Source of the DNA: Myxococcota bacterium
GTDB lineage: Bacteria; Myxococcota_A; UBA9160; PR03
Direction of reading: 5' to 3'
NCBI GenBank assembly: GCA_028284525.1
Contig: JANQRO010000537.1
Location: 1-32,596 of the forward strand
DNA length: 32,596 nt
This document shows, piece after piece, positions 9,163 to 26,309 of this stretch. Position 1 is the first letter of the stretch. Every line of letters starts with the position of its first letter. The translations under genes were made by a program, and so were the position numbers. Below the pieces are notes generated by a model, which worked only from the letters and a program-made list of their open reading frames with translations, had not been told where the DNA came from and did no database searches.

Positions 9163-9175
9163 ATATGGAGCCGCG

Positions 9176-9514
9176 ATGTCCGATCCCCTGGATGCCACGT
9201 TTGCCGCGCTCTCCGATCCGACCCGGCGCGGCATCCTCGCCCAGCTCTCGACCGGCGAATGCTCGGTGGGAGAGCTCGCCGAGGCCTTTCCCATCACCCA
9301 GTCCGCCGTGTCCCGCCACCTCCAGGTGCTCGAGCGGGCGGGCCTCATCACCCGGCGCCGGGACGGGCAGCGCCGATTGTGTCGTCTCGAGGACGCTCCC
9401 TTCGACGCCGCGAGCGCCTGGATCGACCGGACCCGCGCGGAGTGGGAGGCGCGGCTGGACCGGCTCGGGCGCGTCGTCGCCCGCGGCGCCGACGTCCCGA
9501 AGACGGGCCGATGA
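9176..9514 (+). CDS. ArsR-family winged-helix transcriptional regulator
   Basis: FAALSDPTRRGILAQLSTGECSVGELAEAFPITQSAVSRHLQVLERAGLITRRRDGQRRLCRL. Confidence 0.95.
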   Translation: MSDPLDATFAALSDPTRRGILAQLSTGECSVGELAEAFPITQSAVSRHLQVLERAGLITRRRDGQRRLCRLEDAPFDAASAWIDRTRAEWEARLDRLGRVVARGADVPKTGR

Positions 9515-9966
9515 CCGCGCGCAGCGTCGAGGTCTCCCGTCGCTACCCCGCGACCGCACCCGACCTGTTCCGGGCCTGGGTCGAGCCCGACCTGGTCGAG
9601 AGCTGGTGGGGGCCCGAGGGGTTCAAGACCGTGGTCACCCACCTCGACGCCCGCGTCGGGGGAACCTTTCGCTTCGAGATGATCTCGCCCTCGGGCGCCC
9701 GCGGCGCGATGGCCGGGTTCTACCGCGAGGTCTCCCCCGGGCGTCGGCTCGTGTTCGAGCTCACCGAGCACTGCAACTGCGACCTCGCGCCCGGCGACCC
9801 GCCCCAGCTCGACGCGACCGAGGTCTGCGTCGAGTTTCTCGAAGACGGCGACGGGACCCTCGTCCGCATCGTGCACCGGGGTCTCACGAGCGATGCGATC
9901 GCCGGCCGCACCGGCGGGGGCTGGGCCAGCGGTCTCGCCTGTCTCGCCCGCGCGGTGGGCGGCTAG
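9511..9966 (+). CDS. SRPBCC / AHSA1 (Activator of Hsp90 ATPase homolog 1-like) domain protein
   Basis: VSRRYPATAPDLFRAWVEPDLVESWWGPEGFKT; ATGA overlap with the upstream ArsR gene, a common pairing. Confidence 0.92.
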   Translation: MTARSVEVSRRYPATAPDLFRAWVEPDLVESWWGPEGFKTVVTHLDARVGGTFRFEMISPSGARGAMAGFYREVSPGRRLVFELTEHCNCDLAPGDPPQLDATEVCVEFLEDGDGTLVRIVHRGLTSDAIAGRTGGGWASGLACLARAVGG

Positions 9967-10146
9967 GCCCCGGCGCCGCTCTCGCTCGCGCGGCGCGCCT
10001 GCGATCCCCCGCGGTCGAGCTGGAAGGGAGGATCACGGCATGGACATCACCGAGCGCGGAGCGTTCGTCGCGCACGTCACGAGTGGGCACCCGCCGAGGT
10101 GCCTGGCGTACACTCCGGGGGCCTCGGTCACTCGTTGGGAGTCCCC

Positions 10147-11367
10147 ATGCCGCCGCTCGACGACCACGCGCTCTCCGACGTCCGCATCCTCGACCTGAGC
10201 CGGGTCGTCGCCGGGCCCTACTGCACTCGGATGCTCGCCGAGATGGGCGCCGAGGTGATCAAGATCGAGCCGGCGCCCGCCGGCGAGCTCTCGCGGGGGG
10301 CGGCGTCGTTCAAGGGCGGCCGCAGCCTCTACTTCGTCCAGCAGAACCGCGGCAAACAGAGCGTCTGTGTCAACCTGAAGGACCCGCGCGGCATCGCGTT
10401 GGTGGCCGAGCTCGTGCCCCACGTCGACGCCGTGGTGGAGAACTTCCGCCCCGGCGTGCTCGACGGCATGGGCTTGGGCTACGAGCGCCTCCGCGAGCTC
10501 AAAGAGGACATCATCCTGTGCTCGATCTCGTCCTTCGGACAGACGGGCCCCTTGGCCTCGAAGCCCGGGTACGACTTCATCGCCCAGGCCTACTCGGGGA
10601 TGACCTCGATGATCGGGGACCCGGGGGAGCCGCCGGCGCTCCCCTCGGCGGCCATCGGCGACGCCAGCACGGGGGCCCACGCCGCCGTCGCGCTCCTCGC
10701 GGCGCTCCACCGCCGCAACCGGACGGGGAAGGGCGAGCGCATCGACGTCTCCATCCTCGACGTCTACTACGCCTATCACGACGCCAACGTCCACGTGTAC
10801 AGCGGGACCAACGGCGAGGTGGTCCCCACCCGCGCCGGCCGCTATTACGGCTTCGCCTGCCCGGCCGGGGTGTATCGCTGCGGCGACCAGTACATCGTGG
10901 TGATGGGCATGCTCCACCACTGGCCCGACCTCTGTCGGGCGATGGGGCGAGAAGACCTCATCGACGACCCGGAGCTCGGCAACGACCGCAGCCGCGTCAA
11001 GCGCCGGGACGACGTGACCGAGATGCTCGAAGACTGGCTCGGCCAGTTTCCCGACGTCCACGCCGCCGTCGCGGAGCTCGAGCGTTTCGACGTGCCCTGT
11101 GCCCCCGTGCTCTCGATCGCCGAAGCGACCCAGCACCCACATCTGCGCGAGCGCGGCACCGTGCAGGCCATCGACGATCCGGTACACGGCCCGGTGGAGA
11201 TCCCGGCCATGCCGATCCGCTGGGGCGAGCTCCCGAACCAGCCCCCCATCGACTCGCCCACTCTCGGCCAGCACAACCGCAAGGTCCTGGCCGACATCCT
11301 GGGTCGCAGCGAGGCCGACCTCGAGGCGCTGCGCGACGCGGGCGTGCTCCTCGAGAAAGAGGTGTAG
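10147..11367 (+). CDS. CaiB/BaiF family (type III) CoA-transferase
   Basis: VRILDLSRVVAGPYCTRMLAEMGAEVIKIEPA, VCVNLKDPRG, VENFRPGVLDGMGLGYERL, SISSFGQTGPLASKPGYDFIAQAYSGM. Confidence 0.95.
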   Translation: MPPLDDHALSDVRILDLSRVVAGPYCTRMLAEMGAEVIKIEPAPAGELSRGAASFKGGRSLYFVQQNRGKQSVCVNLKDPRGIALVAELVPHVDAVVENFRPGVLDGMGLGYERLRELKEDIILCSISSFGQTGPLASKPGYDFIAQAYSGMTSMIGDPGEPPALPSAAIGDASTGAHAAVALLAALHRRNRTGKGERIDVSILDVYYAYHDANVHVYSGTNGEVVPTRAGRYYGFACPAGVYRCGDQYIVVMGMLHHWPDLCRAMGREDLIDDPELGNDRSRVKRRDDVTEMLEDWLGQFPDVHAAVAELERFDVPCAPVLSIAEATQHPHLRERGTVQAIDDPVHGPVEIPAMPIRWGELPNQPPIDSPTLGQHNRKVLADILGRSEADLEALRDAGVLLEKEV

Positions 11368-11439
11368 ACGCCGTCGTCGCGCTTGGCCTAGGTTGCGACC
11401 GACCCCTCGCACCCGACGAGTGCTGCCGGAGGAGCCTGC

Positions 11440-12105
11440 GTGCGGACCCCGCGTCTTCGACCCGTCTCGTCCCTCGCGATCCTCGGCATCGCGCTCCTGG
11501 GGAGCGGCGTGGCGACGGCCACACCGGTGCGCTCCATCCCGGGCCTCGAATCGATCACCTTCTGGGAGCGCACGGGGGGCGCGGGGCCGAGCGCGTCGAC
11601 CTTCCTGGTCGCGGGCTCCGAGCTCACCATTCGCTTGAGCGACCCGCTCGGGGCGGCCAACCACGACATCTCCGGAGCGAGCACCGAGTACTACGACGTC
11701 TACTACTCCGACGCCAACGGCGCGTTCGACCTCGACGGCGAGTACTTGAGCATCGAAGGCGTCTTTCTGCAGGGGGCGCCCGCCGGCGGCGGGCTCAACC
11801 TCGCGGAGATCGAGCTCAACTTCTCGGCCGCACCCGGCGAGTTCGGCAACTTCGTCGCCAGCTTCGTCGCGCTCGGCGACAACGCGTTCCCGGCAACCGT
11901 GGGTCGCGCGATCGACGGCGATCTCCTCACCCACACGACGATGGGCAACACGGCGGGGAGCGACCAACGCCTGCGCGTGACGCTCGGCTTCCGCTCCTCG
12001 TCGGGCGAGCCCCCGAGCGACCCGATTCCGGAGCCCGCGACGGCGCTGCTCCTCGCGCTCGGCGTGCTCGGCCTGGCGTCGCGCGGCAAGCGGACGAACG
12101 CGTAG
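11440..12105 (+). CDS. PEP-CTERM sorting domain-containing exported protein
   Basis: N-terminal signal peptide; C-terminal IPEPATALLLALGVLGLASRGKR (PEP motif, TM helix, basic tail). Confidence 0.85.
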   Translation: MRTPRLRPVSSLAILGIALLGSGVATATPVRSIPGLESITFWERTGGAGPSASTFLVAGSELTIRLSDPLGAANHDISGASTEYYDVYYSDANGAFDLDGEYLSIEGVFLQGAPAGGGLNLAEIELNFSAAPGEFGNFVASFVALGDNAFPATVGRAIDGDLLTHTTMGNTAGSDQRLRVTLGFRSSSGEPPSDPIPEPATALLLALGVLGLASRGKRTNA

Positions 12106-12200
12106 GGCGCGCGTCCGCGACCGTCTCCACGGGTTTGGCGGAAGCAGTCGCGTTTCCGCTCGCTGGAGACCGGCCGCGGGCGAGCTACGGTGGACGTCTC

Positions 12201-12276
12201 GGGCGTGTAGCTCAGCTGGGAGAGCACCTGGTTTACACCCAGGCGGTCGGCGGTTCGATCCCGTCCGCGCCCACCA
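12201..12276 (+). tRNA. tRNA-Val (anticodon TAC)
   Basis: Acceptor GGGCGTG/CGCGCCC, anticodon loop GTTTACAC, T loop GGTTCGATCC, encoded CCA. Confidence 0.93.
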
Positions 12277-12571
12277 ACCCAAACCAACACCTAGCACCGA
12301 GGGGCGCCGCTCCCCGGCACCGAGGCCGTTTGGTGTAGGCCGAGCGATCGGGAGCGGGGTATGTCATCGGCGAGCGCTGCAAGGAAGCGTTCGACGGCGG
12401 CCCGGCTCGGGGCGGCGGAGCCATCGCCCCCGAGACCGCGAGCGGAGATCGCCGGAACCGACCGAAGGTCGAAGATCCATCGCCGGCTGGTGCTCGCTCC
12501 CCTCTCTGGTGCTTTGCTGTCGCTCCTGCCGCGAGACGAAAGACGTCGCCCGCCCGGGGAGGCCCACGCGT

Positions 12572-14415: not shown

Positions 14416-16053
14416 ATGACGGACCAACCGTCGCCGAGTCCCAAGGGGACGCTCTCGGGATTGTCGAAGAACTGGAAGGCGGATCTGGTCTCCGGCCTCC
14501 TGGTGTTCCTGATCGCGCTTCCCCTGTGTCTGGCCATCTCCCTCGCGTCCGGCTACCCGGCGATCGCGGGGATCTTCACCGCGATCGTCGGCGGTGTGCT
14601 GTCGAGCTTCATCAGCAACTCGGAGCTCACCATCAAAGGCCCCGCGGCGGGGTTGATCGTCATCGCGCTCGGCTGCGTGACGGAGTTCGGCTTCACCGGC
14701 GGGGCAGACCCCGCGGCCGACTTCCAGGCCTACCGGCTGGCGCTGGGCGTCGGGGTGGTCGCCGGAGCGATCCAGATCCTGCTGGGCGTGTTCCGGTCCG
14801 GAATTCTGGGGGAGTTCTTTCCCACCGCAGCGGTACACGGCCTGCTGGCCTCGATCGGCGTTCTGGTCATCGCGACCCAGTTCCCGATCACGCTCGGGGT
14901 GAGCGCGAGCGGAACCCCGCTCGAACGACTCGCCAGCTTCCCGAGCTACGTCATGAATCTCAATCCCGCGGTCGCGCTCATCGGGGGGTCGAGCCTCGCG
15001 ATCATGTTCGGCTACCCGCTGATCAAGAACCCGACCCTGCGAGCGATTCCAGCACCCCTGGTGGTCCTGCTGGTCGCCGTGCCCCTGGGCATGGCCCTCG
15101 ACCTGGGAACGGAGCAGACCTACTCCTTCGGCGGAGCCAGCCATCCCCTGGGCCCCGAGTTCCTCGTCAACGTGCCGTCCAATCTGTTCAGCGCGTTCAC
15201 CTTTCCGGATTTCTCGGGGGTCCCGACCGCGACGGGCGTCAAGTACATCGTGATGTTCGCGCTGATCGGGAGTCTCGAGTCACTTCTGAGCGCGAAGGCC
15301 ATCGATCAGATCGATCCGTGGCGACGCAAGACGAACCTCGACCGCGACCTGCTCGCCGTCGGGGTCGGCAACACGCTCGTCTCCTTCGTCGGCGGTCTCC
15401 CGATGATCTCCGAGATCGTGCGTAGCCGGGCGAACATCGACAACGGCGCCCGAACGCGGTTCGCCAACGCGTTCCACGGGACCTTCCTGCTCGTCTTTGT
15501 CGCGGCCGTCCCGGCGTTGATCAACCAGATCCCGCTCGCGGCCCTGGGGGCGATGCTCGTCTTCACCGGCTTCCGCCTGGCGTCGCCCTCCGAGTTCGTG
15601 CACATGTATCGAATCGGGCGCGAGCAGCTCGTCGTCTTCGTCGCCACGATCCTGGGGGTCCTCGCGACGGACCTGCTGAGCGGGATCGGGATCGGCATCC
15701 TGGTGAAGGCGATCATCCACGTGATCAACGGTGCGCCGGTGGCTTCGCTGCTCAAATCCGACATCACCGTCGATCCCGGGAGCGGCTCGGACGCGACCAT
15801 CGCGGTTCGGCGATCGGCGACCTTCGGCACCTGGATCCCGCTCAAGCGACGAATCGACCGCCTGCCGGACGCGCCACGCATCGTGGTCGACCTGTCGAAC
15901 ACCGCGTTGGTCGATCACACCGTCATGGCGAATCTCCAGGCATTGGGCGAGGACTTCGAGGAAGGCGGTAGATCGCTGGTAGTCACCGGTCTGGAGGGGC
16001 ACCACGCGATGTCCGACTACCCGAGCGCTGCGCGCAAGAAGGCATCGAATTGA
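14416..16053 (+). CDS. SulP family inorganic anion (possibly bicarbonate) transporter with STAS-like C-terminus
   Basis: WKADLVSGLLVFLIALPLCLAISLASGYPAIAGIFTAIVGGVLSSFISNSELTIKGPAAGLIVIALG; C-terminal IVVDLSNTALVDHTVMANLQALGEDF STAS-like. Confidence 0.93.
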   Translation: MTDQPSPSPKGTLSGLSKNWKADLVSGLLVFLIALPLCLAISLASGYPAIAGIFTAIVGGVLSSFISNSELTIKGPAAGLIVIALGCVTEFGFTGGADPAADFQAYRLALGVGVVAGAIQILLGVFRSGILGEFFPTAAVHGLLASIGVLVIATQFPITLGVSASGTPLERLASFPSYVMNLNPAVALIGGSSLAIMFGYPLIKNPTLRAIPAPLVVLLVAVPLGMALDLGTEQTYSFGGASHPLGPEFLVNVPSNLFSAFTFPDFSGVPTATGVKYIVMFALIGSLESLLSAKAIDQIDPWRRKTNLDRDLLAVGVGNTLVSFVGGLPMISEIVRSRANIDNGARTRFANAFHGTFLLVFVAAVPALINQIPLAALGAMLVFTGFRLASPSEFVHMYRIGREQLVVFVATILGVLATDLLSGIGIGILVKAIIHVINGAPVASLLKSDITVDPGSGSDATIAVRRSATFGTWIPLKRRIDRLPDAPRIVVDLSNTALVDHTVMANLQALGEDFEEGGRSLVVTGLEGHHAMSDYPSAARKKASN

Positions 16054-18950
16054 GCGAACCGAGCGAGATGGAGACCCCGGCCGACGCGACCGAGGCGAGA
16101 TCGCGTCTGCTGCGCGAGATCGACGAGGCGGCCGAGCCGGTCTCGCAGTTCTGGCCGATGAAGGGGTTCGTGTCCCACAACCCCCTCCAGGGGCTCGAGC
16201 ATCTTCCCTTCGATGAGGCGGTGCAGCAGGCGAAGCATCTCATCGGGGCGGAGGGGTACCTCCCGGTCGAGGAGTATCGCGAGCTGTTTGCGGAGGGTCG
16301 CATCACGGATCGCAGCGTCGATCGCGCGCTCGCGCGGGTCGGCCCGAGCGACGACCGGTCCCTGTCGCTCGCGTCCCGCACCATCACGGCGGCGGAAGTC
16401 CACAAGCTGCATCTGCTGCACGGGATCGACCCCCTCGAGCCGGCGCTCTTCGACTGGATGTTCACCAGTGCCGGGGCCCTCGCGCGACCCTGCGCCGGCG
16501 TATCGAGCGGTCTCGATCTCGTCGCGCTCTGGCGCCACGTGCTCGCCACGCTCGAGCTCACGGACCCCCGCCTCGGTCTTCCGGACGATGCGACGGAGCG
16601 GGGAGACCCGGCGACCGTCGAGCTGCCCTACCGCCGCGCGCTCAGCGACTGGATCGACGAGCGGACCGGGTCGTCCGTCGTCGCGACGATCGACACGCAG
16701 GTGATCAAATGGGTCTCGTCCTTCGTCGACGAGGGGATGGCCGGGTGGTCGATGCCGTCGAGACGGAGCGGGTTCTACGCCGCGTGGCGCGAGCTGGCGC
16801 AGCACGACCACAGCGGTCGCTTGCTGGGGATCCATCGTTGCGCGGCGAAGATCGCCGCGCTGCCGGCCGACCCGGAAGCGGCGATCGCGAGCCTGCTCGA
16901 GACGATGCAGATCCCCGATTCGCGCTGGCCCGACTATCTGGCACGGGTGCTCGCGCAGCTCCCGGGCTGGACGGGGCTCGTCCGCTGGCGCGGCGCGAAC
17001 CCGGACGACCCGATTCAGAAGCTCAATCCGATCGACGTCACCCAGTATCTCGCCGTTCGGTTGTTCTATGAAGCGGAGCTCGTCGGGGCCGAAGCGCGCC
17101 GCCGATGGAAGGGTCGCGGAACGCTCCCGGAGATCGCGGGGCACCTCGCCGCCGCCGGCGCCGACGCCACCGTCGGTCCCAACAAGAAAGGGGTGTGCGA
17201 CGACGCGTGGCGCGTCTTCCGGCTCGCGCAGTGGCTCGCCCTGTCCGAGGAAAGCGTCACGGCCCTCAGCGGGGAGCAATCGCAGACGCTGTTGGGCTGG
17301 CTCGACGACTTCCCGGCGTCGCGCCAGAACCCCGTCTGGCTGGAGGCGTACGAAGATTCGTTCCGCATCGAGCTGCTGTCGAAGATCTCCTCTCACCGCG
17401 CCTCGGCGCCGGTGGTGGAAGGACGCCCGCTGGCCCAGGCCGCGTTCTGTATCGACGTCCGTTCGGAGCCGTTTCGCCGCAATTTCGAGGCGACGGGCCC
17501 CTACGAGACCTTTGGCTACGCGGGGTTCTTCGGGATTCCCATCGACCACCGCGGCTTCGACACGGACGAGTCGTTTCCATTGTGTCCGGTTCTTCTCACG
17601 CCTTCGAACGCGTTGTTCGAGCTGCCCCGCGCGGGTCAGGAGCAGGCGCTCGAGCGCTACGCGTCGGGCTCTCGGTGGAAACGACTCGGCGAGCACCTCT
17701 TCCACGACTTGAAACACAATCCCGTCGCGTCGTTCCTGCTCGTCGACGTACTCGGGATGTTCTTCAGTCTCGGGCTGGTGGGCAAGACGCTGTTGCGGCG
17801 GCCCTACCACACCCTCCTCGGTGGGTTGCGGGGGTGGTTTCGGCAACCCGTGGTGACCGAGATCCGCGTCGGGGAGACGGGCGCGGCGCCGCCGGGGGTG
17901 GGCGGGCTGCCGGTCACGCTGCCCCGCGGCTTCTCGGTCGAGCAGCAGGCGAACTTTGTCGAAGGGGGTCTGCGCACCATCGGCCTCACCCAGAATTTCG
18001 GTCGCTTCTTCGTCGTGTGTGGTCATGGGAGTGAGACGGACAACAACCCGTACTTCGCCGCCCTCGATTGCGGCGCGTGCGGGGGTCGTCACGGAGACCC
18101 CAACGCCCGCACCTTCGCGGCGATGGCCAACAGCCCCGCGGTGCGCGCGGAGCTCGCCACACGCGGGCTCGAGATTCCCGACGACACCTGGTTCCTGCCC
18201 GCCAAACACAATACGACGGCGGATCGGGTCGAGTTCTACGACCTCGTGGATCTTCCGGACAGCCACCGCGAGGATCTGGAGACGCTGCGCCGAGATCTCC
18301 TCGAGGGCGGAGCCCAACAGGCGCTCGAACGCGCCGGCGGGATCCCGGGGACACCCCGGGGGATGGACGCCAAGCGGGCGTTCGCGCACGTCGAGTCGCG
18401 GAGTATCGACTGGGCGACCACGAGGCCGGAATGGGGCCTCTCGGGCAACGCGGCGTTCATCGTGGCTCGCCGGGCGGTCACCAAAGGGCTGAACCTCGGC
18501 GGGCGTTGCTTTCTCCACTCCTACGACGCCGCCACCGATCCGGAGGGCGCGATCCTGGAGCGGGTGATGACCGCGCCGCTCGTGGTCGGCGAGTGGATCA
18601 ACATGCAGTACTACACGTCCGCGACCGATCCGTGGAAGTACGGCAGCGGGAGCAAGGTGATCCACAACATCGTCGCCGGCATCGGCGTGATGTACGGATC
18701 CCAGAGCGACCTGGCCACCGGGCTTCCTCTGCAGACGGTGAACGACGGCGTCCTCCATTACCACGAACCCATGCGACTGCTGGCGGTGATCGAAGCGGCC
18801 CCTTCGATCGTCGCCGGTATCATCTCCCGTCACGAGGTGCTCCAGCAGTTCTTTCACAACGGATGGATGAACCTCGTCGTCCTCGACCCGCAGACCTTCC
18901 GTTTTCACCGCTACAACCGCGACGCGACCTGGGAGGCGATCGAGCTGTGA
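16050..18950 (+). CDS. dabA: DabA-like inorganic carbon transporter subunit (DUF2309/UPF0753)
   Basis: FWPMKGFVSHNPLQGLE, AFCIDVRSEPFRRNFEATGPYETFGYAGFFG, VVCGHGSETDNNPYFAALDCGACGGRHGDPNARTFA, NMQYYTSATDPWKYGSGSKVIHNI; TTG start with AAGAAGG RBS overlapping the sulP stop. Confidence 0.95.
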   Translation: MSEPSEMETPADATEARSRLLREIDEAAEPVSQFWPMKGFVSHNPLQGLEHLPFDEAVQQAKHLIGAEGYLPVEEYRELFAEGRITDRSVDRALARVGPSDDRSLSLASRTITAAEVHKLHLLHGIDPLEPALFDWMFTSAGALARPCAGVSSGLDLVALWRHVLATLELTDPRLGLPDDATERGDPATVELPYRRALSDWIDERTGSSVVATIDTQVIKWVSSFVDEGMAGWSMPSRRSGFYAAWRELAQHDHSGRLLGIHRCAAKIAALPADPEAAIASLLETMQIPDSRWPDYLARVLAQLPGWTGLVRWRGANPDDPIQKLNPIDVTQYLAVRLFYEAELVGAEARRRWKGRGTLPEIAGHLAAAGADATVGPNKKGVCDDAWRVFRLAQWLALSEESVTALSGEQSQTLLGWLDDFPASRQNPVWLEAYEDSFRIELLSKISSHRASAPVVEGRPLAQAAFCIDVRSEPFRRNFEATGPYETFGYAGFFGIPIDHRGFDTDESFPLCPVLLTPSNALFELPRAGQEQALERYASGSRWKRLGEHLFHDLKHNPVASFLLVDVLGMFFSLGLVGKTLLRRPYHTLLGGLRGWFRQPVVTEIRVGETGAAPPGVGGLPVTLPRGFSVEQQANFVEGGLRTIGLTQNFGRFFVVCGHGSETDNNPYFAALDCGACGGRHGDPNARTFAAMANSPAVRAELATRGLEIPDDTWFLPAKHNTTADRVEFYDLVDLPDSHREDLETLRRDLLEGGAQQALERAGGIPGTPRGMDAKRAFAHVESRSIDWATTRPEWGLSGNAAFIVARRAVTKGLNLGGRCFLHSYDAATDPEGAILERVMTAPLVVGEWINMQYYTSATDPWKYGSGSKVIHNIVAGIGVMYGSQSDLATGLPLQTVNDGVLHYHEPMRLLAVIEAAPSIVAGIISRHEVLQQFFHNGWMNLVVLDPQTFRFHRYNRDATWEAIEL

Positions 18951-19417
18951 GAATCCTCGTTGCGGTCGGGCTGTTCCTGCTCTGGATTGCCTTGTCGGCG
19001 TCGTTTCATCCGGCCCATCTGCTCGCGGGCGCGGTGTTCTCGGGTGGCGTCGCCTGGCTCAACCCGATCGGAACGGCGCGGGCACGAGGAGTCTCGGTCG
19101 CGGCCGCCGTCGTGTATGGGCCCTGGTTGTTCGTGCGGATCCTCAAGAGCGGGTTGCACGTGAGCCGGCTCATCCTTCACCCGTCGCTGCCGATCGCTCC
19201 CCGTCTCATCCGCCATCGGACGAATCTCCGGAGCGACGGAGAGCTCGTCACGATCGGAAACTCGATCACGCTGACACCCGGCACCATCACCATCGAAGCC
19301 GGCCCGGGCGAGCTGCTCGTCCACGCCATCGACGAGCCGTCGAGCGAGGACCTCGTGGGCGGTCTGCTCGAAGACCGGGTCGCGCGCGTCTTTCCGAAGC
19401 AGGGCGACGCCACGTGA
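18947..19417 (+). CDS. mnhE: Na+/H+ antiporter subunit E (MrpE/MnhE; MbhA-like)
   Basis: FLLWIALSASFHPAHLLAGAVFSGGVAWLN, NSITLTPGTITIE.....LLVHAID; GTGA overlap with dabA stop. Confidence 0.92.
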   Translation: MRILVAVGLFLLWIALSASFHPAHLLAGAVFSGGVAWLNPIGTARARGVSVAAAVVYGPWLFVRILKSGLHVSRLILHPSLPIAPRLIRHRTNLRSDGELVTIGNSITLTPGTITIEAGPGELLVHAIDEPSSEDLVGGLLEDRVARVFPKQGDAT

Positions 19418-19683
19418 ATACCTTTTTCTCCTTCGTCATGGGCACGCTCGCCGCCCTGATGCTCGTCTACCTGTATCGCGTGGTCCGCGGTCCGACGGTG
19501 TTCGATCGGGTCCTCGGGCTGAACGGGATCTCGACCAAAGCGATCATCCTGATCGTCGTGATCGGTACCGTTTTCGAGCGCGTCGATATGTTCGTCGATA
19601 TTTCGACCGGCTACGCGCTCCTGAACCTTGTCGGCGCTCTCGCCATCACGAAGTTCCTCGAGGAACGGGGGGCGACCGAATGA
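19414..19683 (+). CDS. mnhF: Monovalent cation/H+ antiporter subunit F (MrpF; MbhB-like)
   Basis: YRVVRGPTVFDRVLGLNGISTKAIILI, DISTGYALLNLVGALAITKFLEERG. Confidence 0.93.
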   Translation: MNTFFSFVMGTLAALMLVYLYRVVRGPTVFDRVLGLNGISTKAIILIVVIGTVFERVDMFVDISTGYALLNLVGALAITKFLEERGATE

Positions 19684-19985: not shown

Positions 19986-20499
19986 GCTCCCGCTCCTGAT
20001 CGTGCTCGTGACGACCGCGGCGGGCGCGCTGACGGTCAGGGACCTGATCTCCGCCGTGTTCATCCTCGGGTCGTACAGCTTTACGCTCGCCCTGGTCTGG
20101 GCGCTCCTCGGAGCGGTGGACGTCGCGTTCGTCGAAGCTGTCGTCGGAGCGGGTCTCGCGACGGTGTTCTTTCTGCTGACGCTCTTTCGCGCCTCGGTGA
20201 AAGACACGGAGATCCGCAGGCCCCCCGTGCCCGTGGTCGCGGTCGTGGGGCTGCCGCTTCTCGCGATCCTTCTCCTGTATGGCGCGGGCGACCTGCCCGC
20301 GTTCGGCGACCCGACCTCTCCGGCGAGCACCCACGTCTCGCCGACCTACCTGGAGAACAGCATCAGCGACACACGCACACCGAACGTCGTGACGTCGGTG
20401 CTGATGGACTACCGCGCGCTCGACACGCTCGTCGAGACGATCGTGATCTTTACGGCTGGCATCGCCTGTGCGTTGATTCTCAGGAACGACGACCAATGA
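19975..20499 (+). CDS. MbhD/MbhE-type fusion (DUF4040; equivalent to MrpA C-terminal region)
   Basis: LTVRDLISAVFILGSYSFTLALVWALLGAVDVAFVEAVVGAGLATVFFLLTL (MbhD) and VTSVLMDYRALDTLVETIVIFTAGIAC (MbhE/MrpA C-term). Confidence 0.88.
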   Translation: MTYELPLLIVLVTTAAGALTVRDLISAVFILGSYSFTLALVWALLGAVDVAFVEAVVGAGLATVFFLLTLFRASVKDTEIRRPPVPVVAVVGLPLLAILLLYGAGDLPAFGDPTSPASTHVSPTYLENSISDTRTPNVVTSVLMDYRALDTLVETIVIFTAGIACALILRNDDQ

Positions 20500-20957
20500 T
20501 TCAGCAGCACGAGAGTGTCATCGTACGCAGGGCGGGCCGGATCGTGATTCCGGTCGCGCAGCTCTTCGGTTTCTATGTGCTCGTGTTCGGACAGTACGGC
20601 CCGGGCGGTGGATTCGTCGGAGGCGTGATCCTGGCGGCCAGTCTGATCCTGGCGATCCTGGTGTTCGGCCTCGAGGCACCCGAGAGCAAGGCCGTGCCGA
20701 CGGTGCTCTATGCGGACGGCCTGGGGCTGTTGATCTTCGCGTTTGTCGGCGGCCTGTGTCTGATCGGCGGTGGCCAGTTCCTGAACTACTCCGATCTCGA
20801 GGTTCCGGGTCTCGACGACGCGTCTCGCCGCTACCTCGGAATCCTGCTGACCCAGGTCGGTGTCGCCGTCGACGTCGCGACGACGGGAGTGTCGATCGCG
20901 GTCAGTCTGTCGTCCGACGACGACGAGCTCTCGGGGCCGGAGGAGCTCGATGATTGA
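20496..20957 (+). CDS. mnhB: MnhB domain subunit (MrpB; MbhF-like)
   Basis: RIVIPVAQLFGFYVLVFGQYGPGGGFVGGVILAASLILAIL; ATGA overlap. Confidence 0.93.
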   Translation: MIQQHESVIVRRAGRIVIPVAQLFGFYVLVFGQYGPGGGFVGGVILAASLILAILVFGLEAPESKAVPTVLYADGLGLLIFAFVGGLCLIGGGQFLNYSDLEVPGLDDASRRYLGILLTQVGVAVDVATTGVSIAVSLSSDDDELSGPEELDD

Positions 20958-22790: not shown

Positions 22791-24815
22791 TTGTCGTACT
22801 ACACGCTGATACCGCTGCTTCCGCTCGCCGCAGCCGCGACCCTCGCGCTCTTCGGCCGTCGACTCGAGGGGGTCGGCCAGCGGATCGTGGTTCCCGCGGT
22901 TGCCGGGTCGTTCTTGCTGTCGATCGCGGCGTTTCTCGAGGTGTCGGCCACGGGTCCGATCGAGGTCGAGCTGTACCGCCTCCTCGCGGTCGGCTGGCTC
23001 GTCGTCGACGTCGGCTTCTTTCTCGACCCGTTGACGGTCCTGATCCTGCTTCTCGTCACGGGGGTGAGCACCGTCGTCCAGATCTACTCCTCGCGGTACA
23101 TGGTCGGCGACGCACGGCACAGCCGCTTCTTTGCCGTGACGGCGCTGTTCACGGGCGCGATGACCGTTCTCGTCATGAGTAGCAATCTGCTGGTGACGCT
23201 CATCTTCTGGGAGGTGATGGGCATTTGTTCCTACCTCCTGATCTCGCACTACGCCGCGCGTCCGTCGGCGGGTCGCGCCGCCACACGGGTCTTTTTGATC
23301 AACTCGGTCGCCGACGTCGGCCTGAGCTTCGGCGTCATCTTGACCTTTTTGAGCTTCGGGACCCTGGATATCCCCGATATCCTCGCGAGCGTGCGCGCCG
23401 GGATGGAGGTGCCCGCCGCGACCGTGACCGCACTGACGCTCTGTCTCTTCGCGGGGGCCGTGGGCAAGTCGGCGCAAATGCCGGCGCACGTGTGGCTGCC
23501 CTTTGCGATGGAGGCGCCGACGCCCGTCTCGGCGCTGATCCACGCGGCGACGATGGTGAACGCCGGTCCCTTCCTTCTGGTGCGGTTGAGCCCCGTGATC
23601 GCACTCTCCAGTACCACCATGACGGTGATCGCCACCGTGGGGGCGGTCACCGCGTTGTTCGCCGCGGTGGTCTCGCTCACACAGACCGACGTCAAACGGA
23701 CGCTCGCCTACTCCACGATCAGCCAGCTCGGCTTCATGACCTTTCTGTGCGGAGTCGGGGCCTTCGTGGCCGCGATCTTCCATCTGATCGCCCACGGCTT
23801 CTTCAAGGGCTACCTGTTCCTGTCGACGGGCAACACGCTCGCGGAGACCCACCGGCGCTTCGAGCTGGAGACCACGGCCCCCGCTCGTGCGTCGAGCGGT
23901 CTGTTTGCGGGGGCGTTCATCCTGGCTGCCCTGCCGCCGCTCGTGATCTTCTCGGGCGCCTACCAACAGCTCTGGCGATCGCAGAGCTTCTCCGCCGCGG
24001 GCGTCGCGCTCTGGATTGTCGGGCTGGGCACGGTCTTCTTTACCGCCATGTACGTGTTCGAGGGTATCCGGACGGTGTTCCGCGAGGGGCCGCCGGGAAC
24101 GGACGACGGCGCAACACGTGTGGCACCCGGCTTCGTGTCCTGGCGGCACATCGCCCTGGTGCTCGCGATGACCGCCGTCGCGATCGCGGTGCTCCTCGCG
24201 ACGTGGGGCTGGTTCGCGGCGTTTCTGGCGCCGGCGGTCGCCACCGCCGGGGGGGTCGCGCCCGCGCCGCCGCTCGAGTGGTCGGCTTGGATGCTGGTCC
24301 CGATCGCCGTCGCGGCGTGCGGTTGCGCAGTGTCGGCGTCGCGGCACGCGCGGGCCGGCGCCCCGAGCGCGACGCCGTGGCAAAAGCGTCTCTACGTCTA
24401 CTTTCTGAACAAGGGCTATTTCGACGAGATCTACGACGTCGCGATCGTCCGACCGCTCCTCGCGGCCTCGCATTGGCTGTGGCAACGGATCGACCGCGGG
24501 GTCATCGATCGCGCGGTGCTTTCGTCCGGCCCGGCGACGATCGCCGTGGCCACCTGGCTGTGGCGCAGGATCGATCAGCTCATCATCGACCGCGTCGTGG
24601 TGTCGGTCGGGTCCGCGAGCATCGGGGCGGCGCGCGAGCTCGGGAAACGGGTCGACACCGCGGGAATCGAGCGAACGGTCGAGCGGATCGGTCAGGGGGT
24701 GGACGCGTCGAGTCGGGTGGCCAGGCGCTACGAGCCCAACACGCTGCAGCACCACCTTCTGGTGGTGGTCATTCTGCTCGTGCTCGCGTTGGGCTTCTTC
24801 TACAGCATTGCATAG
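22791..24815 (+). CDS. NuoL-like proton-conducting antiporter subunit with extended repetitive C-terminal linker
   Basis: LVTLIFWEVMGICSYLLISHY, VGKSAQMPAHVWLPFAMEAPTPVSALIHAATMVNAGPFLLVR, QTDVKRTLAYSTISQLGFM, NKGYFDEIYDVAIVRPL; TTG start. Confidence 0.92.
   Translation: MSYYTLIPLLPLAAAATLALFGRRLEGVGQRIVVPAVAGSFLLSIAAFLEVSATGPIEVELYRLLAVGWLVVDVGFFLDPLTVLILLLVTGVSTVVQIYSSRYMVGDARHSRFFAVTALFTGAMTVLVMSSNLLVTLIFWEVMGICSYLLISHYAARPSAGRAATRVFLINSVADVGLSFGVILTFLSFGTLDIPDILASVRAGMEVPAATVTALTLCLFAGAVGKSAQMPAHVWLPFAMEAPTPVSALIHAATMVNAGPFLLVRLSPVIALSSTTMTVIATVGAVTALFAAVVSLTQTDVKRTLAYSTISQLGFMTFLCGVGAFVAAIFHLIAHGFFKGYLFLSTGNTLAETHRRFELETTAPARASSGLFAGAFILAALPPLVIFSGAYQQLWRSQSFSAAGVALWIVGLGTVFFTAMYVFEGIRTVFREGPPGTDDGATRVAPGFVSWRHIALVLAMTAVAIAVLLATWGWFAAFLAPAVATAGGVAPAPPLEWSAWMLVPIAVAACGCAVSASRHARAGAPSATPWQKRLYVYFLNKGYFDEIYDVAIVRPLLAASHWLWQRIDRGVIDRAVLSSGPATIAVATWLWRRIDQLIIDRVVVSVGSASIGAARELGKRVDTAGIERTVERIGQGVDASSRVARRYEPNTLQHHLLVVVILLVLALGFFYSIA
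24474..24716 (+). repeat. Three tandem 27-aa repeats within the NuoL-like C-terminal linker
   Basis: WLWQRIDRGVIDRAVLSSGPATIAVAT / WLWRRIDQLIIDRVVVSVGSASIGAAR / ELGKRVDTAGIERTVERIGQGVDASSR, contiguous 81-nt units. Confidence 0.75.
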
Positions 24816-24827
24816 GCAGACAACGAT

Positions 24828-26309
24828 ATGAGTGCACTATTCGAAGGTCACTTGCTGAGCTGGATGATCGCCGTGCCCGCTGTCGGCATCGCAGTGCTCG
24901 CGGTCGTGCCCGAGCGCGCGATCCGAATGTCGGCGCTCGTGGCGACGCTCGTGAATCTCGCGTTCGCGATCTACCTCTGGCGGGGGTTCGATCTCGCCGA
25001 GCGGGGTCTGCAGTTCGTCGAGCGGGTCGAGTGGATGCCGACCTTTGGGATTCAGTACGCCGTCGGAGTCGATGGGATCAGTATCCTCTTGGTGTTGCTC
25101 ACGACGCTTCTGTGCCCGTTGTGTGTTCTGGGCTCCTGGGAGGGGATTACGACGCGCTTGCGCGCGTACATGATGCTGATCCTGCTCGTCGAGGGCGCGA
25201 TGATCGTGGTCTTCACGGCCCTCGACGCGTTTCTGTTCTTCATGTTGTGGGAAGTCACGATGATTCCCATGTACTTCATGATCGTGCTGTGGGGCGGGCC
25301 CGAACGCTCGGCCGCGGGTCTCAAGTACGTGATCTACAGCCTGATCGGCAGTCTGCTGCTGCTCGTCGGTATCCTCGGGATGTCGCTACAGGCCGAGACC
25401 TTCGATATCCAAGCGCTCGCCGAGCACGCCTATTCCGAGAGCTCCCAGCGCTGGATCTTCGCGGCCCTCTTCCTCGGGTTCGCCATCAAGCTCCCGATGA
25501 TCCCGTTTCACACCTGGTTGCCCGACGCGCATTCCGAGGCACCCACCGCGGGCAGCGTGCTCCTCGCCGGAGTCCTGTTGAAGATGGGTGGCTACGGCAT
25601 GATCCGGTTCTGCCTCCCGATCTTCCCCGACGTCGCGATCCACTTCGCGCCGACCCTGTTGTGGCTGTCGGTCGCGGCGATCCTCTACGGGGGCTCGATG
25701 GCCCTGGCCCAGTCGGACCTCAAACGGCTGGTGGCGTACTCGTCGGTTTCGCATATGGGGTTCGTGACGCTCGGGATCTTCTCGTTCACGAGGGAGGGGA
25801 TCGAGGGCGCGATCTTGCAGATGGGCACCCACGGCATCACGACCGGCGCGCTGTTTCTCATCGTCGGCCAGCTCTACGACCGAACCCACAGTCGCGCGAT
25901 GGCCGACTACGGAGGACTCCACCAACGGATGCCGCGCTTTGTGGCGATCCTGAGTCTGTTCGCGGTCGCCTCGTTCGGGCTTCCCGCGACGTCGAACTTC
26001 ATCGGGGAGTTTCTGATCCTGGTCGGTGTGTCGTACGAGAGCTTTGTGTTGGTCGTGCTCGCGATGGGGGGCATCGTGCTCGGCGCCGCCTACATGTTGT
26101 GGATGCTGCAACGCGTGGCGCTCGGACAGCCCCGGACCGAGGCCGCGCGCCAGATCGAGGACATCAATCTCCGAGAAGTGATCACCGTCGCACCGCTCGC
26201 GATCGCGGTCCTCGCGATCGGTCTCTACCCGGGGCCGATGCTCGAGACGATGGACGCGAGCGTGTCGTACGTCGTCGAGCGCATCGCGCTCGTGAAGTCC
26301 ACGCCCTAG
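24828..26309 (+). CDS. NuoM-like proton-conducting antiporter subunit
   Basis: AVGVDGISILLVLLTTLLCPL, FMLWEVTMIPMYFMIVLWGG, AIKLPMIPFHTWLPDAHSEAPTAGSVLLAGVLLKMGGYGMIRF, QSDLKRLVAYSSVSHMGFV. Confidence 0.95.
   Translation: MSALFEGHLLSWMIAVPAVGIAVLAVVPERAIRMSALVATLVNLAFAIYLWRGFDLAERGLQFVERVEWMPTFGIQYAVGVDGISILLVLLTTLLCPLCVLGSWEGITTRLRAYMMLILLVEGAMIVVFTALDAFLFFMLWEVTMIPMYFMIVLWGGPERSAAGLKYVIYSLIGSLLLLVGILGMSLQAETFDIQALAEHAYSESSQRWIFAALFLGFAIKLPMIPFHTWLPDAHSEAPTAGSVLLAGVLLKMGGYGMIRFCLPIFPDVAIHFAPTLLWLSVAAILYGGSMALAQSDLKRLVAYSSVSHMGFVTLGIFSFTREGIEGAILQMGTHGITTGALFLIVGQLYDRTHSRAMADYGGLHQRMPRFVAILSLFAVASFGLPATSNFIGEFLILVGVSYESFVLVVLAMGGIVLGAAYMLWMLQRVALGQPRTEAARQIEDINLREVITVAPLAIAVLAIGLYPGPMLETMDASVSYVVERIALVKSTP

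What the first reader, a model, noticed from the sequence alone, without database searches (positions are those of the whole stretch)
24474..24716. Three tandem 27-aa repeats in the NuoL-like C-terminal linker
Directly seen: W-L-W-x-R-I-D-x3-I-D-R-x14 units, contiguous and in frame (WLWQRIDRGVIDRAVLSSGPATIAVAT / WLWRRIDQLIIDRVVVSVGSASIGAAR / ELGKRVDTAGIERTVERIGQGVDASSR), lying between the NKGYFDEIYD segment and the last TM helix. In complex I this is where the NuoL lateral helix HL sits. Inference: HL has been lengthened by internal duplication so it can span extra subunits, as expected if this subunit braces a larger multi-pump assembly or contacts DabA.
Basis: partly seen in the sequence, partly recalled or inferred. 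Interest (0 to 1): 0.62.

Follow-up and report, generated by a model that had tools for sequence, protein, structure and literature searches.

The report
Repeat-lengthened brace helix, CO2-transporter pump complex
A pump-complex protein carries a helix that in ordinary respiratory complex I straps three ion pumps together, and here its 27-residue building block is present three times instead of once; relatives carry one to four whole copies although the gene cluster always encodes three pumps, which hints that one pump protein may be used several times in a longer machine.

Summary
In detail: three in-frame 27-residue units at 24474-24716. The gene is the NuoL-like subunit of a conserved operon, SulP-DabA-MnhE-F-G-(MbhD/E)-B-C-D-NuoL-NuoM, found in Gammaproteobacteria, Rhodospirillaceae, Myxococcota, Acidobacteriota, Nitrospinota and Nitrospirota. 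The units lie in lateral helix HL. Own complex I and the other canonical NuoL examined have one unit; MrpA has none; four-pump complexes (2M, rhizobial 'green') have about one more. HL span fits 25 + 27n residues: MrpA 25-26 (2 pumps), complex I 51-54 (3), four-pump 76-77, this window 106 (n=3).

In the DabA-Mrp family n is 1, 2, 3 or 4 (spans 52; 78-79; 103-106; 128-133; nothing between, 54 sequences). It changed at least 16 times, sometimes between near-identical sisters, while the operon keeps three pump genes. Units are under purifying selection (dN/dS 0.18-0.22).

So HL was lengthened by duplicating the NuoM-contact segment. Most likely it braces a longer pump stack, and since only three pump genes exist, the likeliest extra modules are further NuoM copies (L-M-M-M-D here). 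That last step is inferred. A DabA-docking role is disfavoured. The kind is known (2M complex I); variable unit number uncoupled from gene number was not found described.

The parts
14416..16053 (+). SulP-family (BicA-like) transporter, first gene of the operon; start by inspection
   Evidence: PF00916 4.1e-56; in synteny in most relatives
16050..18950 (+). DabA (PF10070), 966 aa
   Evidence: PF10070 4.6e-260
18947..19417 (+). MnhE-like subunit
   Evidence: conserved frame and position across relatives; no Pfam run on it
19414..19683 (+). MnhF
   Evidence: PF04066
19680..19985 (+). MnhG
   Evidence: PF03334
19975..20499 (+). MbhD/MbhE (detached C-terminal part of MrpA)
   Evidence: PF13244, PF20501; NF009159 above cut-off
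20496..20957 (+). MnhB
   Evidence: PF04039
20950..21324 (+). MnhC (NuoK-like)
   Evidence: PF00420
21321..22772 (+). MnhD, pump subunit 1 of 3
   Evidence: PF00361 3.6e-53; nearest NCBIfam models are Mrp subunit D, with NuoN further down
22791..24815 (+). NuoL-like subunit, 674 aa, pump subunit 2 of 3, carrier of the repeats
   Evidence: PF00361, PF00662; TIGR01974 433 bits, above cut-off 407.5; Foldseek best matches are complex I L/ND5
24438..24473 (+). HL head, 12 residues after FDEIYD
   Evidence: units start at HL index 12 in the sequences inspected
24474..24554 (+). HL unit 1 (WLWQRIDRGVIDRAVLSSGPATIAVAT)
24555..24635 (+). HL unit 2 (WLWRRIDQLIIDRVVVSVGSASIGAAR)
24636..24716 (+). HL unit 3, degenerate terminal unit (ELGKRVDTAGIERTVERIGQGVDASSR)
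24717..24812 (+). HL tail (13 residues, VARRYEPNTLQHH) and last TM helix (TM16)
   Evidence: conserved TLQH anchor; helix 652-673 in the model
24828..26309 (+). NuoM-like subunit, pump subunit 3 of 3, proposed to occur in several copies
   Evidence: TIGR01972 597 bits, far above cut-off 263.8; PF00361 2.6e-78

Best explanation
The gene is the NuoL-type end subunit of a DabA-Mrp hybrid complex (probable inorganic-carbon uptake or CO2 hydration coupled to ion flow). SHOWN: its lateral helix HL consists of a 12-residue head, three copies of the 27-residue segment that complex I NuoL has once, and a 13-residue tail, span 106 residues. In orthologues HL grows and shrinks only by whole units while the gene set stays the same. 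INFERRED FROM THE LADDER: one unit spans one antiporter-type subunit (pumps = units + 2), so HL here is dimensioned for about five antiporter widths. INFERRED, LEAST CERTAIN: because only three pump genes exist, the extra positions are filled by further copies of the single NuoM-like protein, giving an arm L-M-M-M-D whose length is set by HL as a ruler, so that unit number would set ions moved per DabA turnover. My split: HL braces an arm longer than three pumps 0.6; the extra modules are NuoM copies 0.4.
For: Ladder: MrpA 25-26 residues, complex I 51-54, 2M complex I 76 (L083; L127 similar by inspection; their four pump genes), S. meliloti green complex I MrpD2 77 (counted by hand; gene order), this family 52, 78-79, 103-106, 128-133 and nothing between (54 sequences). 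Gene content constant: relatives with a full operon have D, L, M; gammaproteobacterial genomes with n=2 (G048), n=3 (G833, G834, G835, G837) and n=4 (G043, G044) all have exactly six PF00361 genes, read as complex I L, M, N plus D, L, M, G044 being a single chromosomal contig. Repeated whole-unit change: at least 16 on a tree built without HL, including L035/L060, L054/L058 and L061/L066; 81/81 identical neighbouring units in L061, 95% in L162. Constraint: dN/dS of units 1, 2, 3 = 0.22, 0.20, 0.18 vs 0.13 for a conserved core stretch. The unit motif aligns with E. coli NuoL 561-567, where residues P564-N566 were reported as the HL-NuoM contact (PMC3274701). The NuoM-like protein is a true NuoM-family protein. 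Model with one helix 541-620, low confidence.
Against: No complex has been seen; nothing here shows more than one NuoM per complex. A homomeric M-M contact is not known in complex I, where each pump is a different protein. Whole-unit change between near-identical sisters could also mean that unit number matters little. Model confidence in HL is low (pLDDT mostly below 50 from residue 609) and units are not uniformly amphipathic. Nitrospirota relatives lacking all Mrp genes (L188, L167, L190) have HLs off the ladder.
Confidence: 0.45

Rival explanations
1. HL is longer than the arm needs: the complex has three pumps (L, M, D) and the surplus units extend past it, brace Mrp small subunits or the partner protomer of a dimer, or tie neighbouring complexes together.
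For: Only three pump genes are encoded. Mrp is a dimer of protomers in the solved structure (PMC7419157). Unit number varies between close relatives.
Against: MrpA works with the same kind of small subunits with no unit. n=1 orthologues (L055, L117) have the whole operon. The step equals the step per pump in complexes of 2, 3 and 4 pumps.
Confidence: 0.25
2. Unit number is close to neutral: replication slippage or recombination adds and removes 81-bp units, and any whole number is tolerated because a longer helix loops out or floats on the membrane.
For: Recent exact or near-exact 81-bp duplications; at least 16 changes; E. coli complex I tolerates some 6-7-residue insertions in HL (PMC3274701).
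Against: Purifying selection on each unit (dN/dS 0.18-0.22); no partial-unit lengths among 54 sequences; the single unit of canonical NuoL did not vary in number in the three-pump complexes measured; an insertion between L and M in E. coli HL cost most of the pumping (PMC3274701).
Confidence: 0.2
3. The extra units are a docking platform for DabA.
For: DabA is encoded in the same operon.
Against: L055 and L117 have DabA and n=1; DabB, which contacts DabA directly, has only a short HL (PMC13144422) and own DabB ends about 20 residues after the HL start; one DabA gene per operon does not explain 1 to 4 units.
Confidence: 0.08

Closest known systems
2M complex I (Chadwick et al. 2018, known here through PMC9040806 and PMC6606698) and Ca. 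Manganitrophaceae Complex_I_3
   Same: HL of the end subunit carries an insertion of about 26 residues, read as spanning an extra pump; L083 and L127 reproduce it.
   Different: There the extra length goes with an extra pump gene; here up to three extra units with no extra gene, repeat-built and variable between sister species. DabA-Mrp, not a quinone reductase.
Respiratory complex I, NuoL
   Same: Nearest family by sequence (TIGR01974 above cut-off) and fold; same HL head, unit motif and TM16.
   Different: One unit, constant; no complex I electron-transfer genes in this operon.
Mrp antiporter (MrpA-G)
   Same: MnhB, C, D, F, G, MbhD/E present, plus an MnhE-like frame.
   Different: MrpA is replaced by a NuoL-like protein, a NuoM and DabA are added; MrpA HL has no unit.
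DabAB / DAB2 (PMC13144422)
   Same: DabA homologue with an antiporter-type partner.
   Different: DAB2 has one antiporter subunit with a short HL; this has three plus the Mrp set. Own genome also has an ordinary DabAB (L009).
YbcC-NuoL clade C operons (COGNAT, PMC5700660) and the Mrp-NuoL/M-BicA locus of Ca. Nitrospira alkalitolerans (PMC7784846; also PMC12342949)
   Same: Earlier sightings of DabA next to SulP, NuoL and NuoM, and of Mrp next to NuoL/M-like genes; COGNAT already proposed that the number of membrane subunits relates to the number of ions.
   Different: The passages read do not mention HL repeats; the Nitrospira papers do not mention DabA in that locus in the passages read.

Membership tests
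2M-type (HL-extended) complex I | HL insertion of about 26 residues per extra pump subunit | tested here: met
   length step only: window span 106 vs 51-54; step 26-27
2M-type (HL-extended) complex I | a second NuoM gene (four pump genes) | tested here: not met
   D, L, M only
2M-type (HL-extended) complex I | complex I electron-transfer arm genes in the operon | tested here: not met
   operon is SulP-DabA-Mrp-D-L-M; complex I is elsewhere in the genome (L008)
Complex I NuoL family (protein level) | TIGR01974 NDH_I_L above its cut-off | tested here: met
   433 bits vs 407.5
Complex I NuoL family (protein level) | single HL unit | tested here: not met
   three units vs one in canonical NuoL
Mrp antiporter | subunits B, C, D, E, F, G | tested here: met
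   Pfam B, C, D, F, G; E by conserved frame only
Mrp antiporter | MrpA as one large fused subunit | tested here: not met
   MbhD/E part is a separate gene; the large subunit is NuoL-like
DAB (DabA-dependent inorganic-carbon system) | DabA (PF10070) | tested here: met
   4.6e-260
DAB (DabA-dependent inorganic-carbon system) | adjacent antiporter-type membrane subunit | tested here: met
   three in the operon
DAB (DabA-dependent inorganic-carbon system) | zinc site intact and inorganic-carbon uptake | not tested
   active-site residues not aligned; activity needs experiment

The most novel reading that the evidence does not exclude
HL is a molecular ruler made of NuoM-binding units: evolution changes the number of identical NuoM-like pumps in the arm by duplicating or deleting 81-bp units, changing the ion-to-reaction ratio of the DabA complex in whole steps, analogous to c-ring size in ATP synthase.
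Probability: 0.33. Interest if true: 0.87.

Novelty: new variant of a known kind. Interest (0 to 1): 0.63.

Why it matters
If each unit seats one more pump, this family is a natural series of arms of 3, 4, 5 and 6 pumps built from the same genes, with which two open questions could be tested: what sets the length of complex I-like membrane arms, and how pump number relates to ions per turnover. It would also be the first case known to me of a complex I-type arm with a repeated identical pump. If it is wrong, the family still shows that HL length and pump gene number can be uncoupled, which weakens the current practice of inferring extra pumps from HL insertions alone.

Tried and rejected
DabA docking as the reason for the units: disfavoured by n=1 orthologues with DabA and by short-HL DabB. 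Mrp small subunits as the reason: disfavoured by MrpA with no unit. Hidden extra pump genes elsewhere: rejected for the Gammaproteobacteria, where all antiporter genes are accounted for; the window genome, 87% complete, also shows none. Assembly collapse of identical repeats: cannot explain L035 vs L060, whose units are diverged, and n=3 or 4 also occurs in very long contigs (G044, G1016, G1090); it remains possible for single short-read MAGs with n=2 and for the exact 81-bp pair in L061. Simple amphipathic-helix periodicity: power is spread over angles near harmonics of 27 (80, 93, 107 degrees), so a uniform amphipathic helix was not confirmed. Close relatives of the window genome (40 genomes) lack the system and gave only complex I controls. 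Viral and metagenome collections were not searched. L165, L167, L169 (operons without Mrp genes) were left out of the ladder because their tails do not align.

Full report
OBSERVATION. The 243 bases 24474-24716 encode three contiguous 27-residue units in frame in the 674-aa ORF 22791-24815. Lag 27 is the only strong autocorrelation of the linker; none of 20,000 shuffles reached the score of units 1-2 or 2-3, and 0.02% that of units 1-3. Unit 3 is a weaker, terminal copy. The claim and its coordinates are right.

CONTEXT. The ORF is gene ten of an eleven-gene run on the plus strand: SulP, DabA, MnhE-like, MnhF, MnhG, MbhD/E, MnhB, MnhC, MnhD, NuoL-like, NuoM-like. The genome (4.7 Mb, 87% complete) has seven antiporter-type genes: complex I L, M, N; DabB of an ordinary DabAB; and D, L, M here. 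No RuBisCO large subunit was found in it, so DabA may serve anaplerotic carboxylation rather than autotrophy; that is inference. Forty relatives of the genome have at best complex I NuoL, so the operon is sparsely distributed; a genome of the same order (L123) has the same HL sequence as a MAG deposited as Myxococcota (L041).

RELATIVES. A scan of species genomes gave 34 loci, the best 71% identical, in Gammaproteobacteria, Rhodospirillaceae, Myxococcota, Acidobacteriota, Nitrospinota and Nitrospirales; further ones came from Nitrospinota (24 of 77 genomes over the threshold, two of them ordinary complex I) and Nitrospirota. Gene order is conserved, SulP being absent next to the operon in many Nitrospinota.

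THE LADDER. I measured HL from the residue after FDEIYD to the TM16 anchor (TLQH / QHY). Known complexes: MrpA 26 and 25 residues (Rhizobium L199, Niallia L198; two pumps); complex I NuoL 51-54 (three pumps); 2M complex I 76 in L083 (four pumps), with L127 of similar length; S. meliloti green complex I MrpD2 77, counted by hand (four pumps). E. coli NuoL is somewhat shorter by the same landmarks. The DabA-Mrp NuoL-like proteins: 52 (L055, and L117 by hand), 78-79 (8), 103-106 (33, window 106), 128-133 (11), none between. All lie close to 25 + 27n, with units starting at HL positions 12, 39, 66, 93 in 27-residue lineages; some gammaproteobacterial inner units are 25 residues.

GENE NUMBER. The family departs from the published rule at one point: n rises to 4 with pump genes fixed at three. 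The clearest cases are Gammaproteobacteria, where six PF00361 genes (three of complex I, three of this operon, by position) are found whether n is 2 (G048), 3 (G833, G834, G835, G837) or 4 (G043, G044); G044 is one chromosomal contig of 6.6 Mb. In the Nitrospinota genome G047 the two situations coexist: a four-pump complex I with HL 76 and a three-gene DabA-Mrp with n=4.

EVOLUTION. On a tree of the protein without HL, n changed at least 16 times (quick method, several open forks, so the number is approximate). Starred sister pairs differ by a whole unit: L035 n=3 and L060 n=2, about 0.05 changes per site apart; L054 n=2 and L058 n=3. L061 carries two units identical over 81 bp, L162 95%. Pooled dN/dS is 0.22, 0.20 and 0.18 for units 1 to 3, against 0.13 for a conserved core stretch: the added units are as constrained as the first.

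WHAT A UNIT BINDS. The unit motif W-L-W-x-x-[IV]-D-x3-I-D aligns with E. coli NuoL residues 561-567 (residue names agree with the paper's numbering). Belevich et al. report that L565 and N566, next to P564, are the HL residues closest to NuoM in 3RKO (PMC3274701). With MrpA (no NuoM, no unit), complex I (one NuoM, one unit) and 2M (two NuoM, about two units) this makes a unit the NuoM-contact segment. This is an inference from alignment plus one published contact.

STRUCTURE. AlphaFold2 from 29 family sequences gives mean pLDDT 65.8; HL is helix 541-620, 626-633 and 640-646, pLDDT about 45-66 and mostly under 50 from residue 609. An n=4 protein gave helices 575-645, 649-672, 675-688, also weak. 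Foldseek matches are complex I L/ND5. HL is nearly free of proline between its ends, with one proline in unit 1 of the window, L037 and L121. So a long helix is plausible, not proven.

MECHANISM. Best reading: HL braces an arm of about n + 2 antiporter-type modules, and as only three genes exist the extra ones are copies of the NuoM-like protein. The alternatives, surplus helix beyond a three-pump arm, near-neutral repeat number, or DabA docking, are ranked in the rivals. Neither DabA nor the Mrp subunits by themselves require extra units (L055, L117, MrpA, DabB).

PRIOR ART. HL extension with an extra pump is known (Chadwick et al. 2018, not held in the library, known here through PMC9040806, and PMC6606698). 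DabA-SulP-NuoL-NuoM operons were noted by COGNAT (PMC5700660) and the Mrp-NuoL/M-BicA locus in Nitrospira (PMC7784846; PMC12342949). Text searches found no report of HL repeats or of variable unit number; the library lacks most subscription journals.

VERDICT. Observation confirmed; interpretation right about duplication and plausibly about bracing, but extra pump genes are absent and DabA contact is disfavoured. A new variant of a known kind, with a specific, testable and more novel possibility behind it.

Noticed in passing
L188 8309-14738, L190 2725-9450, L167 44-4076: Nitrospirota operons with DabA directly followed by NuoL-like and NuoM-like but without any Mrp subunit; their HLs carry one or two units and a different last TM helix, off the ladder.
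   Followed up: partly
L009 3712-7780: The window's genome also has an ordinary single-pump DabAB pair, so it holds two DabA systems of different architecture; no RuBisCO large subunit was found.
   Followed up: partly
L189 174-12219: Two Mrp-type clusters back to back and divergent, one part of a DabA-Mrp operon with n=4, the other an Mrp set of lower similarity.
   Followed up: no
L061 HL, residues 26-28 onward: Two neighbouring 81-bp units are 100% identical: a very recent duplication or an assembly artefact.
   Followed up: no
L055, L117 (Nitrospinota): The n=1 clade has a degenerate unit without the W-D-ID motif, and the L055 operon proteins are diverged (MnhB 42%, NuoM 59%), as if relaxed or re-specialised.
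   Followed up: no
window 9165-12335 +: A 1057-codon open frame between the Lon gene and the operon with no Pfam match.
   Followed up: no
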